Positions 51,657 through 58,342 of a stretch of DNA of 64,000 nucleotides are shown here, piece by piece. Numbering within the stretch: position 1 is the stretch's first letter; the number at the start of each line of letters is the position of its first letter. The notes beneath the pieces are model-generated. The model was not told the DNA's origin. It ran no database searches and saw only the letters and a list, made by a program, of their open reading frames with translations. The translations under genes and the position numbers were made by a program. The stretch is from Caulobacteraceae bacterium (GTDB lineage Bacteria > Pseudomonadota > Alphaproteobacteria > Caulobacterales > Caulobacteraceae). The DNA lies in NCBI GenBank assembly GCA_019748055.1, contig JAIEQC010000014.1:1-64000 (forward strand), in the 5' to 3' direction.

Positions 51657-51683
51657 TTGACTGTGCCAGTGTTACAGCATAGT
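51657..51683 (+). promoter_or_regulatory. Candidate promoter/operator upstream of the YerC-his operon
   Basis: TTGACT hexamer 51657-51662; imperfect inverted repeat ACTGTGC-N10-GCATAGT 51660-51683. Confidence 0.4.
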
Positions 51684-51693
51684 GGAACGCGCC

Positions 51694-52011
51694 ATGACCG
51701 ACGCCTTGCCCCGCAACGCCGCCGCCGCGGCCCGCAGCCGCGTGGAACTGTACGACGCCCTGCTGGCGCTGACCACGCGCGAGGAGGTCGACGCCTTCCT
51801 GTCGGACCTGTGCACCCCGGCCGAGGTGCGCGCCTTCGCCGAGCGGTGGCAGGTGGCGCGTCTGCTGGACGCCGGGGGCAAGACCTATCGCGAAATCGCC
51901 GCCGAGGCCCAGGCCAGCCCGACCACGGTCGTGCGGGTCGCCCGCTTCCTGAAGGAGATGCCGCATCAGGGCTACCGCCTGGTGCTGGACCGTCTCGCCG
52001 CCAAACACTGA
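51694..52011 (+). CDS. YerC/YecD family TrpR-like DNA-binding protein
   Basis: LYDALLALTTREEVDAFLSDLCTPAEVRAFAERWQVARLLDAGGKTYREIAAEAQASPTTVVRVARFL. Confidence 0.88.
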   Translation: MTDALPRNAAAAARSRVELYDALLALTTREEVDAFLSDLCTPAEVRAFAERWQVARLLDAGGKTYREIAAEAQASPTTVVRVARFLKEMPHQGYRLVLDRLAAKH

Positions 52012-52021
52012 GTCAAAACCC

Positions 52022-52903
52022 ATGAGTACCGTGAAGGGGCGGCTGCGCATCGCCGTCCAGAAGTCCGGCCGTCTGTCCGAACGCAGCCTCGACCTCGTCC
52101 GCGACGCTGGCCTGAGGGTCGTGAAGGGCACGAACGACCTGCTGTATCGCATCGAGAACGCGCCCATCGACCTGCTGCGGGTGCGCGACGACGACATCCC
52201 GACCTTCGTGGCGGACGGCGTCTGCGACCTGGGTATCGTCGGCGAGAACGTGCTGGAGGAAGGGCGCAACGGCGGGCCGAACGCCGAGGTGGTCATGCCG
52301 CTGGGCTTCGGTCGGTGCACCCTGAAGATCGCCGTGCCGCCGACGCTGGACTACGTCGGTCCGGCGTCGCTGGAGGGGCGACGCGTGGCGACCAGCTATC
52401 CCCGCGTGCTGAAGCGCTGGCTGGCGGAGCAGGGGGTCACCGCCGACGTGGTGACCATGCGCGGCGCGGTCGAGGTGGCCCCCCGGCTGAAGCTGGCGCA
52501 CGCCATCTGCGACCTGGTGTCGACCGGCGCCACGCTGGAGGCCAACGGCCTGCAGGCGCGCGAGACCGTGCTGGACAGCCAGGCGGTGCTGATCCGCTCA
52601 CCGGTCGCGCCGGAACCCGAACTGGCGGACCTTCTGGAGAGCATCGTCGAGCGGATGGCGGGCGTGGTGGCCAGCCAGGGCGCCAAGTACGTGATGCTGA
52701 ACGCACCGCGGGCCAATCTGGACCGGATCACGGCGCTTCTGCCCGGCGCCGGCGCGCCGACCGTGATGCCCCTGTCGGGGCGCGAGGACGCGGTCGCCGT
52801 CCACGCCGTCTGCCAGGAGGCCGTGTTCTGGGAGACGCTGGAGAAGCTGAAGGCCGAGGGGGCGTCCGCCATCCTGGTCCTGCCGATCGAGAAGATGATG
52901 TGA
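52022..52903 (+). CDS. hisG: ATP phosphoribosyltransferase
   Basis: LRIAVQKSGRLSERSLDLVRDAGL, DLGIVGENVLEE, DLVSTGATLEANGL. Confidence 0.95.
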   Translation: MSTVKGRLRIAVQKSGRLSERSLDLVRDAGLRVVKGTNDLLYRIENAPIDLLRVRDDDIPTFVADGVCDLGIVGENVLEEGRNGGPNAEVVMPLGFGRCTLKIAVPPTLDYVGPASLEGRRVATSYPRVLKRWLAEQGVTADVVTMRGAVEVAPRLKLAHAICDLVSTGATLEANGLQARETVLDSQAVLIRSPVAPEPELADLLESIVERMAGVVASQGAKYVMLNAPRANLDRITALLPGAGAPTVMPLSGREDAVAVHAVCQEAVFWETLEKLKAEGASAILVLPIEKMM

Positions 52904-54210
52904 TGAGGCGGTTCGACTGGAGCCAGCTGGACGAGGCCGGGCGACGCGAGGCGCTGGCGCGGCCCGCGCGCCGGGCGGAGGCCCGCGTGACGGACGGCGT
53001 GCGCGCCATTCTGGACGACGTGCAGGCGCGCGGCGGGGCGGCGGTGACCGAGTGGGCGCTGAAGCTGGACGGGCACGCGCCGCGCCGGGTCGTGCTGGAC
53101 GCCCCGACCGTGGCCGAGGCGCGATCGACCCTGCCGCCCGCCGACGTGCGGGCCCTGCGCGTCGCGGCTGACAATGTGCGGGTGTTCCACCAGGCGACGC
53201 GGCCGGAGGACGGCGGCTGGGTCGAGACGACGCCGGGCGTGCGCTCGCGCATCGCGTGGCGGCCGATCCGGTCGGCGGGCATCTATGTCCCCGGCGGCAC
53301 GGCGCCCTTGTTCTCGTCGCTGCTGATGCAGGCGATCCCGGCGCAGGTGGCGGGCGTGCCAGTGCGGGTGGCGGTGACGCCGCCAGCCAGGGACGGCGGC
53401 GTCCATCCGGCGATGATCCTAGCGGGCGCCGAGGCGGGGCTGGAGGAGATCTGGCTGATCGGCGGGGCGCAGGCGATCGCGGCCCTGACGTTCGGGGCCA
53501 CGTTCGACGACGGGGCGATCCCGGCGTGCGACAAGCTGTTCGGCCCCGGCAATGCCTGGGTGGCCGAGGCCAAGAAGCAGGCGGCGGCCCTGCCGGGCGG
53601 CCCGGCAGTGGACATGCCGGCGGGCCCGTCGGAGCTGATGGTCGTGATCGACCGCGACGCGGCGCCCGAGATCGCGGCGGCCGACCTGCTGAGTCAGGCC
53701 GAGCACGACGCGGACGCCCAGGTGGTGCTGGTTTCCACCAGCCGCGCGACGATCGACTACGTTCTGACCGAGGTGGAGACGCAGCTGGCGGACCTGCCGC
53801 GCGCCGACGTCGCACGGGCGTCTCTAGGCGAGGCCCGGGCGATCCTGGTGCGCGACCTGGACGCGGCGCTGGAGGTCATCAACGCCTATGGCCCCGAGCA
53901 CCTGGCGCTGCAGGTCGACGACGCGGAGGCGCTGATCGACGGCATCACCGCCGCCGGCGCCATCTTCGTCGGCCGGCACGCGGCCGAGACGCTGGGCGAC
54001 TATGCCGCCGGGCCCAGCCACGTGCTGCCGACCGACGGCGGGGCGCGCACGCTGGGCGGCATCACGACGGCCAGCTTCATGACGTCGATGTCGGTGCAGA
54101 CCGTGACCGCGCGGGGCGCGGCGGAATTGGGTCCGATCGCGGCGCGGCTGGCGCGGCTGGAGGGGCTGGAGGCGCACGCGCGCGCCGCTGATTTGAGGAG
54201 CGAGGGATGA
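52903..54210 (+). CDS. hisD: Histidinol dehydrogenase
   Basis: RSAGIYVPGGTAPLFSSLLMQAIPA, MPAGPSELMV, LLSQAEHDADAQ. Confidence 0.96.
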   Translation: MRRFDWSQLDEAGRREALARPARRAEARVTDGVRAILDDVQARGGAAVTEWALKLDGHAPRRVVLDAPTVAEARSTLPPADVRALRVAADNVRVFHQATRPEDGGWVETTPGVRSRIAWRPIRSAGIYVPGGTAPLFSSLLMQAIPAQVAGVPVRVAVTPPARDGGVHPAMILAGAEAGLEEIWLIGGAQAIAALTFGATFDDGAIPACDKLFGPGNAWVAEAKKQAAALPGGPAVDMPAGPSELMVVIDRDAAPEIAAADLLSQAEHDADAQVVLVSTSRATIDYVLTEVETQLADLPRADVARASLGEARAILVRDLDAALEVINAYGPEHLALQVDDAEALIDGITAAGAIFVGRHAAETLGDYAAGPSHVLPTDGGARTLGGITTASFMTSMSVQTVTARGAAELGPIAARLARLEGLEAHARAADLRSEG

Positions 54211-55637
54211 CCCTGCCGGCGCCCTTTCCGCCGCTGGTGTCCGGGGCCGAGGGCCTGGACCGCGCGCCGTCGTCGACGGCGGCCGTCGCGGCCCGCATGG
54301 CCGAGGTCTATGGCGTGTCCGCAGATCGCGTCCTGCCGGTGCGCGGGGCGTCGCATGGGCTGGAGCTGATCTTCCGGCTGGCGGCGCGCGACGGCCTGGG
54401 AGTCGAGGCGCCGGACGCGCCGCCGTTCGACGGGCTGGCGAAACTGTACCGCGCCGCGCCCGAAGGCGCCGAGACGCTGGCCGTCATCGTGCGCGGGCTG
54501 GGCGACGCCGAGGCCGTGTCGGAGATGGCGGCGCGCGTGGGGCCGGCCCTGCTGGTGGTTGACGAGGCGCGGGTGGAATTCTCGGACCAGCCGTCGGTCG
54601 TCGGGCTGGTCGACCGGCTCGACAATCTGGTGGTGGTGCGCAGCCTGTCGCTGTCGCATGGGCTGACGGGAGCGCGCGTCGGAGCCTTGATCGCTCGATC
54701 GGAGACTCTCGGGCGGATCGCCGAAGTGCTTGAGCCGCATCCCGTGCCGGAACCCAGCCTGAGGCTTGCTTTGCAGGCGCTGGATCCGTCGCGGGCGGTG
54801 GAGACCGAGGCCCGGATCGCGCGCGTGCGCGAGGAGCGGGCCCGGATGGTCAAAGCCTTGTCGCGCGAGATGTCGGTCGAAGCCGGCGTCGGGCCGGTCA
54901 TCGCCGCACGGCCGACGGACATGGCGGGCGCCCGCGCGGCGCTGGCGCGGCTGGGCGTGGCCGCCGAGGTCGAGGGCGAGCGCCTGCGTCTGCCCGTCTT
55001 CGCCAGGGCCGAGCTGAACGACCGGACGCTGGCGGCCTTCGGACTGGCGGCCGCGGGCCGACCGCACCGGGCGGGTCAGGCCGTGCGCGACACGAAGGAG
55101 ACGCGCATCGTCTGCGCCGTCGATCTGGACGCGACCGGTCCGGTGCGCATCCAGACCGGCGTCGGTTTCTTCGACCACATGCTGGAGCAGGTGGCGGCGC
55201 ACGGCGGCTTCTCGCTGAGCCTGTCGTGCGAGGGCGATCTGCACACAGACCCGCACCACACGATCGAGGACAGCGCCATCGCCCTGGGTCAGGCGCTGAA
55301 GCAGGCGCTGGGCGAGCGGCGCGGCATCGCCCGCTATGGCTTCGTCCTGCCGATGGACGAGGCCGAGGCGAAGGTGTCGATCGACTTGTCCGGAAGGCCC
55401 TACCCGGTGTTCGAGGGCGATTTCGCCACGCCCTTCATAGGGGAATACCGGACCGACCTGACGGCGCACGTGATCCGCAGTCTGGCGGAGCATCTGGGCG
55501 CGGCGATCCACGTCTCGGTGACCGGGCAGGACGACCACCACAAGACCGAGGCGGTCTACAAGGCGCTGGGTCGCGCCCTGCGTCAGGCGATCCGCGTCGA
55601 GGGCGAGGCCGTGCCGTCGACCAAGGGGGTGCTGTGA
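54207..55637 (+). CDS. hisB: Fusion: N-terminal degenerate HisC-like aminotransferase domain + C-terminal imidazoleglycerol-phosphate dehydratase
   Basis: C-terminal HisB motifs GVGFFDHMLEQVAAHG, DPHHTIEDSAIALGQAL, DDHHKTEAVYKALGRAL; N-terminal LLVVDEARVEFSDQ...VVVRSLSLSHGLTGARVGALIA resembles HisC but lacks the PLP Lys. Confidence 0.9.
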   Translation: MTLPAPFPPLVSGAEGLDRAPSSTAAVAARMAEVYGVSADRVLPVRGASHGLELIFRLAARDGLGVEAPDAPPFDGLAKLYRAAPEGAETLAVIVRGLGDAEAVSEMAARVGPALLVVDEARVEFSDQPSVVGLVDRLDNLVVVRSLSLSHGLTGARVGALIARSETLGRIAEVLEPHPVPEPSLRLALQALDPSRAVETEARIARVREERARMVKALSREMSVEAGVGPVIAARPTDMAGARAALARLGVAAEVEGERLRLPVFARAELNDRTLAAFGLAAAGRPHRAGQAVRDTKETRIVCAVDLDATGPVRIQTGVGFFDHMLEQVAAHGGFSLSLSCEGDLHTDPHHTIEDSAIALGQALKQALGERRGIARYGFVLPMDEAEAKVSIDLSGRPYPVFEGDFATPFIGEYRTDLTAHVIRSLAEHLGAAIHVSVTGQDDHHKTEAVYKALGRALRQAIRVEGEAVPSTKGVL

Positions 55638-56233
55638 GCACGGTCGCGGTCGTCGCCTACGGCGCCGGCAACGTCGCCTCCGTGCGGTTCGCGCTGGAGC
55701 GGCTAGGGGCGGTGGTGAGGCTGGTCTCGACGGCGGCGGAGATCGTGGCGGCCGAACGGCTGATCCTGCCCGGCGTGGGCGCGGCGGGCTATGCGATGGC
55801 GCGGCTGACGGAACTGGGGCTCGTCGAGGCGATCCGGGCGTTCCCGCGCCCGCTGCTGGGCGTTTGCCTGGGCCAGCAGTTGCTGTTCGAGCGCAGCGAC
55901 GAGGGCGAGGCGGAGATGCTGGGGCTGATCCCCGGGCGAGTCGCCCGAATGGAGCCGGGGCCGTCACGGCCCGTGCCGCATATGGGCTGGTCGCGGCTGG
56001 AGGTCGTGCGCGACGATCCGTTGTTGGACGGGCTGGCCGACGAGGCATGGGCCTATTTCGTGCACGGCTTCGTCTGCCCCGACGGTCCGGCGACGCTGGC
56101 GCGGGCGGAGTACGGCGGGCCGGTGCCCGCGGTGGTGCGCGCCGGGAACCGCTGGGGCTGCCAGTTCCACCCGGAGCGGTCGAGCGCGGCCGGGGCGCGG
56201 ATTCTTAAGAACTTTCTGGAGCTGCCCGCGTGA
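55634..56233 (+). CDS. hisH: Imidazole glycerol phosphate synthase, glutamine amidotransferase subunit
   Basis: YGAGNVASVRFALERLG, LLGVCLGQQLLFE, GCQFHPERSS; GTG start. Confidence 0.95.
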   Translation: MSTVAVVAYGAGNVASVRFALERLGAVVRLVSTAAEIVAAERLILPGVGAAGYAMARLTELGLVEAIRAFPRPLLGVCLGQQLLFERSDEGEAEMLGLIPGRVARMEPGPSRPVPHMGWSRLEVVRDDPLLDGLADEAWAYFVHGFVCPDGPATLARAEYGGPVPAVVRAGNRWGCQFHPERSSAAGARILKNFLELPA

Positions 56234-56961
56234 TCGTCTACCCCGCCATCGACCTGAGGGACGGCGCCTGCGTGCGGCTGATGCACGGGCGGTTCGATCA
56301 GGTGACGCGATATGACGACGACCCCGCCGCGCGGCTGGCGGCGTTCGTCGAGGCGGGCGCGGAATGGGTGCATGTGGTGGACCTCGACGGTGCGCAGGCG
56401 GGTCGGGCGGTTCAGCACGGCCTGATCGGGCGGCTGGCGCGGTCCGCCGAGGTGCGCATCCAGTCCGGCGGCGGGGTGCGCTCGCGCGAGGACGTGGCGG
56501 CCCTGCTGGACGCAGGCGTGGCGCGGGTCGTGGTCGGCTCGCAGGCCGTGACGGCGCCTGGGGCGGTGGCGGACTGGCTGACGGAATTCGGGGCCGAGCG
56601 GATCGCCCTGGCGCTGGACGTCAATGTGAGGGACGGCGTGCCGGTGCCGGCGCTGAAGGGCTGGACCGAGGCGGCCACTGTCGATCTGTGGGCGGCGCTG
56701 GACCGGTTTTCGGAAGGGACGGCGCGGCACGTGCTGGTCACCGACGTCGGGCGCGACGGGGCCCTGACCGGGCCCAATCTGGAGCTGCTGGCCGAGATCG
56801 TGCGGCGGAGGCCGGACCTGCAGGTGCAGGCTTCGGGCGGCGTGGCGGTGACGTCGGACCTGACGGCTGCCCGCGACGCGGGCTGCGCCGGCGCCATCGT
56901 CGGCCGGGCGATCTATGAGGGCCGCTTCACGGTCGAGCAGGTGCTGGAGGCCGTGCGATGA
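56230..56961 (+). CDS. hisA: Phosphoribosylformimino-5-aminoimidazole carboxamide ribotide isomerase
   Basis: [43 protein letters not shown]. Confidence 0.95.
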
Positions 56962-57725
56962 CGGCGCGGCGGATCATCCCCTGTCTGGACGTGAAGGACG
57001 GGCGGGTCGTGAAGGGCGTGCGCTTCGAGGGGCACCGCGACATGGGCGACGCCGCCGAACTGGCCGCGCGCTATCGCGACGAGGGCGCCGACGAACTGGT
57101 CTTCTACGACATCACGGCCAGTCCGCAGGGGCGGACGCTGGATTATGGCTGGGTCGAGAGCGTGGCGCGCCTGCTGGACATCCCGTTTTGCGTGGCCGGC
57201 GGCATCCGTACGGTGGAGCAGGCGGCGCGGTGCCTGGAGCATGGGGCGGACAAGGTGTCGATCAACTCGCCGGCGCTGGAGCGGCCGGAGCTGATCGCCG
57301 AAATGGCCGAACGGCTGGGTCAGCAATGCGTGGTCGTGGGCGTCGACAGTCGCAAGGTCGGCGACGACTGGATGGTGCACCAGTACACGGGCGATCCGAC
57401 CGCCAGCCGGGGCGCGGGGCGGCGCACGCTGGATTGGATCGTGGAGGCGCAGGCGCTGGGCGCCGGCGAGATCGTGCTGAACTGCATGGACGAGGACGGC
57501 GTGCGGCGCGGCTATGACCTGGAGCAGCTGACGGCGGCGCGGGCGAGGCTGACGATCCCGCTGGTGGCGTCGGGCGGCGCGGGGTCGGCGGCGCATTTCG
57601 TCGAGGTGTTCGAGACGGCGGACGTGTCCGGAGCGCTGGCCGCGAGCGTGTTTCACACGGGGGCCGTGCGCATTCCGGAGCTGAAGACGGAGCTGGCGCG
57701 CGCTGGCGTGGAGGTGAGGCCATGA
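56958..57725 (+). CDS. hisF: Imidazole glycerol phosphate synthase, cyclase subunit
   Basis: [47 protein letters not shown]. Confidence 0.96.
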
Positions 57726-58342
57726 TCGATTCGAATGCGCTGAATTTCGACAAGGGCGGCGGTCTGATTCCCGCCGTGGTGCAGGACATCGACACCCTGC
57801 AGGTGCTGACCCTCGCCTACATGGACCGCGCCGCGCTGGAGGAGACGATCGTGAGCGGCGAGGCGACCTTCTTCTCCCGCTCGCGCGGCGGGCGCTGGCG
57901 CAAGGGCGAGACGTCGGGCGACCGGCTGTTCGTCCGGCAGATCGTCGCCGACTGCGACGGCGACGCCCTGGTGGTGAAGGTGCGGCCGGTGGGGAACGCC
58001 TGCCACCTGAACCGCGTCAGCTGCTTCGGGGACGAGGACGCGCCGGGGATGGGCCGCCTGGCCCGGCTGGAGCGCACGATCGCTGACCGTGCCGAGGCCG
58101 ACCCCGCCGAGAGCTGGACCGCGCGCCTGCTGGCCGAGGGGCCGAAGCGGGCCGCGCAGAAAGTGGGCGAAGAGGGCGTTGAGACGGCGCTGGCCGGGGC
58201 GGCGGGCGACGACGCCGAGCTGGCATCCGAAGCCGCGGACCTGATCTACCACCTGCTTGTCCTGCTGAAGGCGCGCGGCCTCTCGTCGCAGGACGTGCTG
58301 GATGTGCTGGCGGCGCGAGCCCGGAAATCGGCCACTGCGTGA
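57722..58342 (+). CDS. hisIE: Bifunctional phosphoribosyl-AMP cyclohydrolase/phosphoribosyl-ATP diphosphatase
   Basis: His[27 protein letters not shown]...[10 protein letters not shown]; His[13 protein letters not shown]...[11 protein letters not shown]. Confidence 0.93.

What the first reader, a model, noticed from the sequence alone, without database searches (positions are those of the whole stretch)
54207..55637. HisC-like pseudo-aminotransferase fused to HisB in the canonical hisC slot of the his operon
Seen: a single 476-aa ORF without internal stops. The last ~190 aa is a normal HisB. The first ~285 aa follows the HisC order (VLPVRGASHGLELIFRLA...LLVVDEARVEF...VVVRSLSLSHGLTGARVGALIA...LRLALQAL...VREERARMVKAL). 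In HisC the PLP lysine sits in SKAFGL; here the codon at 54651-54653 is CTG, giving SLSHGL. The NPTG motif region is missing and DEAY has become DEAR. Known: common operon order is hisG-D-C-B-H-A-F-I/E, and E. coli HisB is fused to a HAD phosphatase, not to HisC. Inference: an ancestral hisC-hisB fusion lost catalysis and survives as a non-catalytic domain (scaffold, HisB oligomer modulator, substrate channel or PLP/histidinol-phosphate sensor), with true HisC encoded elsewhere. No other hisC is in this window.
Basis: partly seen in the sequence, partly recalled or inferred. Interest (0 to 1): 0.86.

Follow-up and report, generated by a model that had tools for sequence, protein, structure and literature searches.

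The report
Dead aminotransferase fused to histidine enzyme
In Brevundimonas bacteria the histidine-making enzyme HisB carries at its front a second histidine enzyme, HisC, that has lost its catalytic residues yet is still kept by natural selection, and relatives show the working ancestor, independent decays, and the final deletion.

Summary
ORF 54207-55637 encodes HisB (IGPD) behind a ~285-aa remnant of HisC that lacks the PLP lysine (K214 in E. coli is L149 here), N157, Y187, R322 and the N-terminal arm, but keeps the aminotransferase fold (AlphaFold pLDDT 86.7; Foldseek to E. coli HisC, E 1e-17). It is not a sequencing error: all 59 Brevundimonas loci examined have Leu/Met there. An intact stand-alone HisC lies elsewhere in the genome. 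Related genomes supply the ancestor: 43 carry full-length HisC-HisB fusions with catalytic residues, and in 33 of these the fusion is the only HisC. Wherever the fused HisC has decayed (59 of 59 genomes), a separate HisC is present. Decay happened at least three times. In two or more lineages the remnant was deleted outright, leaving HisD fused to HisB. The dead domain is not neutral ballast: dN/dS is 0.15, against 0.05 for HisB and 0.08 for HisD. I found neither HisC-HisB nor HisD-HisB among published his fusions. Most likely HisB has had no start of its own since it lost its phosphatase domain and was captured by the gene upstream, so the dead domain must keep translating and folding. A specific assembly or sensing role is possible but unproven.

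The parts
54207..55061 (+). pseudo-HisC domain (residues 1-285): aminotransferase fold without PLP lysine (L149), N157, Y187, R322 or N-terminal arm
   Evidence: TIGR01141 95 bits; phmmer to E. coli HisC 1fg3 E 1.4e-18; residue table; AF2 pLDDT 86.7; Foldseek 1gew E 1.3e-17, TMq 0.82
54651..54653 (+). CTG codon, Leu149, at the position of the PLP-binding lysine (E. coli HisC K214); Leu in 58 and Met in 1 of 59 Brevundimonas loci
55062..55637 (+). HisB / imidazoleglycerol-phosphate dehydratase domain (residues ~286-476) with its catalytic His/Glu motifs kept (FFDHMLEQ, HHTIED, DDHHKTEA)
   Evidence: PF00475 E 1.3e-57; NF002111 HisB 240.8 bits, over cut-off 231; Foldseek to IGPD structures E 3e-17
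54195..54200 (+). GAGGAG, likely ribosome-binding site of the fusion; hisD stop and fusion start overlap (ATGA 54207-54210)
   Evidence: read from sequence
51682..52011 (+). TrpR-family regulator (HisR type), first gene of the his operon
   Evidence: PF01371 E 1.6e-20; homologue in the same place in Xanthomonadales-type and fused his operons
52022..52903 (+). hisG
   Evidence: PF01634 E 3.8e-49, PF08029
52906..54210 (+). hisD
   Evidence: PF00815 E 4e-134
55634..56233 (+). hisH
   Evidence: PF00117 E 1.3e-14 and operon position
56230..56961 (+). hisA
   Evidence: PF00977 E 4.1e-67 and operon order
56958..57725 (+). hisF
   Evidence: PF00977 E 3.8e-70 and operon order
57722..58342 (+). hisIE
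   Evidence: PF01502, PF01503

Best explanation
The protein is a one-function enzyme (HisB/IGPD) that carries a dead HisC. Proposed history: a Xanthomonadales-type hisR-G-D-C-[HAD-IGPD]-H-A-F-IE operon entered the lineage. The HAD phosphatase part of hisB, dispensable beside the resident HisN, was lost, so the IGPD part lost its own start codon and became joined in frame to hisC. That intact HisC-HisB enzyme still exists in relatives. Where a stand-alone HisC was also present, one of the two copies became redundant: some lineages lost the stand-alone gene, others let the fused HisC lose its lysine and shrink. The dead part cannot simply vanish, because IGPD is translated only as the C-terminal half of whatever lies upstream. 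It must stay in frame, fold and be tolerated by the IGPD assembly. Today it probably acts as a folded, non-catalytic N-terminal module that supports translation, folding or assembly of HisB, while histidinol-phosphate transamination is done by the separate HisC. Shown by computation: the fusion, loss of catalytic residues, retained fold, separate HisC and HisN, intact ancestors, several separate decays, purifying selection, and no conserved internal start. Inferred: direction of transfer, order of events, loss of activity, and the folding or assembly role.
For: Decayed fused HisC and a stand-alone HisC occur together in 59 of 59 genomes; intact only/both/decayed = 33/10/59. HisD+HisB tree: fused clade 99*, outgroup of HAD-HisB operons 99*, at least 3 changes of the intact state forced by starred branches, and HisD-HisB rows nested within pseudo-HisC rows of genus g19. 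Fold kept. dN/dS 0.152 (0.119-0.190) for the dead domain, HisB 0.051, HisD 0.080. No conserved in-frame start or ribosome site before IGPD; the only common candidate codon is GTG in 37 of 57 and GTT in the nearest relative. No free-standing IGPD of this type found. HisN over cut-off in the own genome.
Against: dN/dS of 0.15, lowest (0.088) in the former PLP loop, is lower than expected for a passive leader, and 36 positions are fixed in Brevundimonas to a residue other than the usual HisC one, so a specific role may exist. The correlation of decay with stand-alone HisC rests on few independent events (2-5 pairs; sign test without power). The origin of the fusion by loss of the HAD part is inferred from tree and operon order only. 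Activity and assembly were not measured.
Confidence: 0.7

Rival explanations
1. The dead HisC has been recruited for a specific new job, such as holding HisB in a larger assembly, docking the stand-alone HisC, or sensing a phosphate ligand (histidinol phosphate, PLP or IGP) in the relic cofactor cup and tuning HisB.
For: Purifying selection strongest at residues 101-220 and in the former PLP loop. In Brevundimonas S213, R222 and D184 of the phosphate/PLP site are fixed although K214, N157 and Y187 are gone. Many positions are newly fixed.
Against: Other decayed lineages lost R222 (Pro) and S213, and some deleted the domain entirely while keeping HisB. The window's own genome has also lost Y55. 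Fold-stability constraint alone could give the same pattern.
Confidence: 0.25
2. The fused HisC still works by an unusual mechanism without the lysine, or still makes a shared active site with a partner.
For: Fold kept; some cofactor-site residues (D184, S213, R222, R335) remain.
Against: The PLP lysine, N157, Y187, R322 and the N-terminal arm are all gone; in other lineages the same lysine became Y, F, I, Q, A, E or S; an intact HisC is always present.
Confidence: 0.03
3. Sequencing or assembly artefact, or a recent pseudogene in one strain.
For: None found.
Against: The same architecture, with Leu/Met at the lysine site, in 59 Brevundimonas loci from many assemblies, including named isolates; dN/dS well below 1.
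Confidence: 0.01

Closest known systems
HisNB (E. coli-type HisB: HAD histidinol-phosphatase fused to IGPD)
   Same: IGPD at the C-terminus, same operon order hisG-D-C-B-H-A-F-IE; the IGPD domain groups with this type in the trees
   Different: No HAD domain; the N-terminal partner is HisC or its remnant. Histidinol phosphatase is a separate HisN
HisC, histidinol-phosphate aminotransferase (E. coli 1fg3/1gew)
   Same: Fold and sequence order
   Different: No PLP lysine, N157, Y187, R322 or N-terminal arm; about 65 residues shorter; fused to IGPD
Known his fusions (hisIE, hisHF/HIS7, hisNB, hisIED/HIS4, hisA/hisF; Fani et al. 2007, PMC1963479)
   Same: Fusion of pathway neighbours in an operon
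   Different: hisC is not among the fused genes listed in 2007 or in the 2023 review (PMC10138114); HisC-HisB and HisD-HisB are not described there
Pseudoenzymes that act on a catalytic partner (general class, from my own knowledge)
   Same: Dead enzyme fold kept under selection next to an active enzyme
   Different: No regulatory effect is shown here; the partner is in the same polypeptide

Membership tests
HisC (TIGR01141) | score over the curated cut-off | tested here: not met
   95.4 bits against 276.55
HisC (TIGR01141) | PLP-binding lysine in SKA motif | tested here: not met
   L149; Leu/Met in all 59 Brevundimonas loci
HisC (TIGR01141) | fold-type I aminotransferase fold | tested here: met
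   AF2 pLDDT 86.7 and Foldseek to 1gew E 1.3e-17, TMq 0.82
HisC (TIGR01141) | transaminase activity | not testable with these tools
   needs an assay
HisB / IGPD (PF00475) | IGPD domain over cut-off with metal-binding His/Glu motifs | tested here: met
   E 1.3e-57; NF002111 240.8 bits over 231; H350, H351, E354, H444, H445, E448 invariant in alignment A1
HisNB bifunctional HisB (NF003937) | N-terminal HAD phosphatase domain | tested here: not met
   266.7 bits against cut-off 443; no HAD match to the N-domain
HisC-HisB fusion clade defined here | HisC-homologous domain in frame with gamma-type IGPD | tested here: met
   profile-profile match of Brevundimonas N-domains to intact fused HisC, 100%, E 3e-43; HisB and HisD+HisB trees
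Pseudoenzyme under selection | dN/dS clearly below 1 after loss of catalytic residues | tested here: met
   0.152 (0.119-0.190)

The most novel reading that the evidence does not exclude
The dead HisC domain is a working regulatory or assembly subunit: it keeps part of the PLP phosphate cup and binds a pathway phosphate ester or the stand-alone HisC, tuning or channelling HisB. That would make it a lineage-specific allosteric pseudo-aminotransferase in histidine synthesis.
Probability: 0.2. Interest if true: 0.8.

Novelty: new variant of a known kind. Interest (0 to 1): 0.62.

Why it matters
Histidine synthesis is a textbook case for how gene fusions arise, yet hisC is absent from the fusion lists I could read. 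Here one order of bacteria shows the full sequence: a working HisC-HisB enzyme, dead HisC on HisB, unrecognisable remnants, and HisD on HisB after the remnant is gone. The transitions have separate origins and each state survives in living genomes. This makes testable whether a fused domain persists because it is useful or because its partner cannot be translated without it, and what keeps a dead enzyme under purifying selection.

Tried and rejected
Sequencing error: rejected, because the same state is found across the genus. Lysine moved elsewhere in the pocket: no candidate seen, not modelled. HAD remnant as source of the N-domain: no match. Independent translation of HisB from an internal start: no conserved start codon or ribosome site. 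A phylogenetically corrected test of 'decay needs a stand-alone HisC': too few independent pairs. The uncorrected Fisher p of 6e-19 is not to be trusted, because related genomes are counted separately. Showing that the ~200-aa N-domains of classes g7/g20/g23 are HisC remnants: profile comparison not significant, and some apparent matches come from reading the end of hisD in a shifted frame, so I leave their origin open. The position of G143 (genus member with an intact fusion) differs between the two trees and is left open.

Full report
What is there. The window holds a complete his operon: a TrpR-family regulator, hisG, hisD, the fusion, hisH, hisA, hisF and hisIE. The fusion (54207-55637) begins at an ATG that overlaps the hisD stop, with GAGGAG six bases upstream. 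Its last ~190 residues are an ordinary IGPD with the His/Glu motifs intact. Its first ~285 residues are homologous to HisC: phmmer E 1.4e-18 to the E. coli enzyme, and the genus profile against intact fused HisC gives E 3e-43.

Is the HisC part dead? In E. coli numbering, K214 is Leu (Met in one) in all 59 Brevundimonas loci. The N157 segment is deleted, Y187 is replaced by varied residues, R322 is mostly Asp or Glu, and the N-terminal arm is missing. D184, S213, R222 and (in all but one) R335 remain. AlphaFold gives a confident aminotransferase-like fold (pLDDT 86.7) whose best PDB matches are HisC structures. The same genome has one full HisC over the family cut-off, on another contig, and a HisN histidinol phosphatase.

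Where it came from. Related genomes carry the same fusion with an intact HisC of about 350 residues and the catalytic residues, in several families of the order and in some Bacteroidota and other MAGs. In trees of HisB, and of HisD plus HisB, the fused clade of this order sits beside Xanthomonadales-type operons whose HisB is HAD-IGPD. Those operons also carry the TrpR-like gene upstream of hisG. HisR of the TrpR family has been reported in Xanthomonadales and Caulobacterales (PMC9413887). I infer that the operon was transferred and that loss of the HAD part joined IGPD to hisC. The first step fits published transfers of the gamma operon (PMC8305728). The second is my inference.

Repeated decay. 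I sorted about 170 HisB loci into four states: intact HisC-HisB; pseudo-HisC-HisB (Brevundimonas g1, g17, part of g19, g28, some f5); HisB behind an unrecognisable ~200-aa domain (f4 g7, g20, g23, g47, g55); and HisD fused directly to HisB (part of g19, g24, G386). The lysine was replaced by different residues in different lineages (L/M, Y/F, I, Q, A, E, S). The HisD+HisB tree needs four changes for the pseudo label, three forced by well-supported branches. HisD-HisB rows of g19 nest within pseudo-HisC rows, and HisD-HisB arose separately in f4. No free-standing IGPD of this type turned up. Two short frames that looked like candidates are contig-edge or broken copies of HisD-HisB.

Redundancy. 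Of 102 genomes scored, 33 have an intact fusion and no other HisC, 10 have both, 59 have a decayed or deleted fused HisC plus a stand-alone HisC, and none has neither; one 65%-complete genome was left out. This is what reciprocal loss of one of two redundant copies predicts. The genomes are related, and independent contrasts are too few for a significant test. Some Brevundimonas genomes lack hisD and hisB altogether (G015, G114, G349, G394), while the stand-alone HisC was found in G015, so it probably has another job as well.

Is the dead domain kept? Twelve close, disjoint species pairs give dN/dS 0.152 (95% bootstrap 0.119-0.190) for the dead domain and 0.051 for HisB. In close pairs HisD has 0.080. 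The lowest value within the dead domain is in the former PLP loop (0.088). Domain length varies only from 276 to 289 residues, while HisB is 191 in all. The domain is therefore constrained about half as strongly as a working enzyme, and not neutral. Deletion in other lineages shows that it is not essential to IGPD as such.

How it most likely works. IGPD has no conserved start of its own and is always joined to the gene upstream. The simplest account is that the dead HisC must be translated and must fold so that HisB folds and assembles; selection on that keeps its core. A particular assembly or sensing role remains possible, since in Brevundimonas parts of the phosphate-binding site are fixed.

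Novelty. The five his fusions listed in 2007 and the genes named in a 2023 review do not include hisC (PMC1963479, PMC10138114). NCBIfam has no model for a HisC-HisB or HisD-HisB protein among the best matches shown. Searches of the open-access library found no report of either. Papers outside that library were not searched. I rate it a new variant of a known kind.

Noticed in passing
L063:4666-6567 (Hyphomonadaceae MAG); also L199-L208, L255-L262, L264, L266, L269, L276, L278, L280: HisD fused directly to HisB (mostly 626-722 aa frames) with no HisC between, arisen at least twice; not in published his-fusion lists I read.
   Followed up: yes
L102, L123, L129 (Bacteroidales), L100 (Cyclobacteriaceae), L065 (Balneolaceae), L061, L062 (MAGs labelled Neisseriaceae and Burkholderiales): Intact HisC-HisB fusions outside the alphaproteobacteria; whether they share one origin with the Caulobacterales-order fusions is unresolved.
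   Followed up: partly
L252-L254, L040 (g7); L265, L267, L270, L275, L277 (g20); L263, L271-L274 (g23); L268, L279: HisB behind a ~200-aa N-domain with no recognisable family; shared by several genera, perhaps a far-reduced HisC but not shown.
   Followed up: partly
window 51682-52011: TrpR-family (HisR-like) regulator as first gene of the his operon; same position in Xanthomonadales-type operons.
   Followed up: partly
genomes G015, G114, G349, G394 (genus) and G376 (family): Near-complete genomes without hisD and hisB, probably histidine auxotrophs; G015 still has the stand-alone HisC.
   Followed up: partly
L183 (G143): A genome placed in the same genus with an intact HisC-HisB fusion (715-aa frame) plus a stand-alone HisC; its place differs between trees.
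   Followed up: partly
L212 (G132): Intermediate decay: nearly full-length fused HisC with K214 to Ser and R222 to Pro, among relatives whose fused HisC is intact.
   Followed up: partly
window 54000-56048 (-): 682-aa open frame antisense to the fusion; typical shadow frame of GC-rich coding DNA.
   Followed up: no
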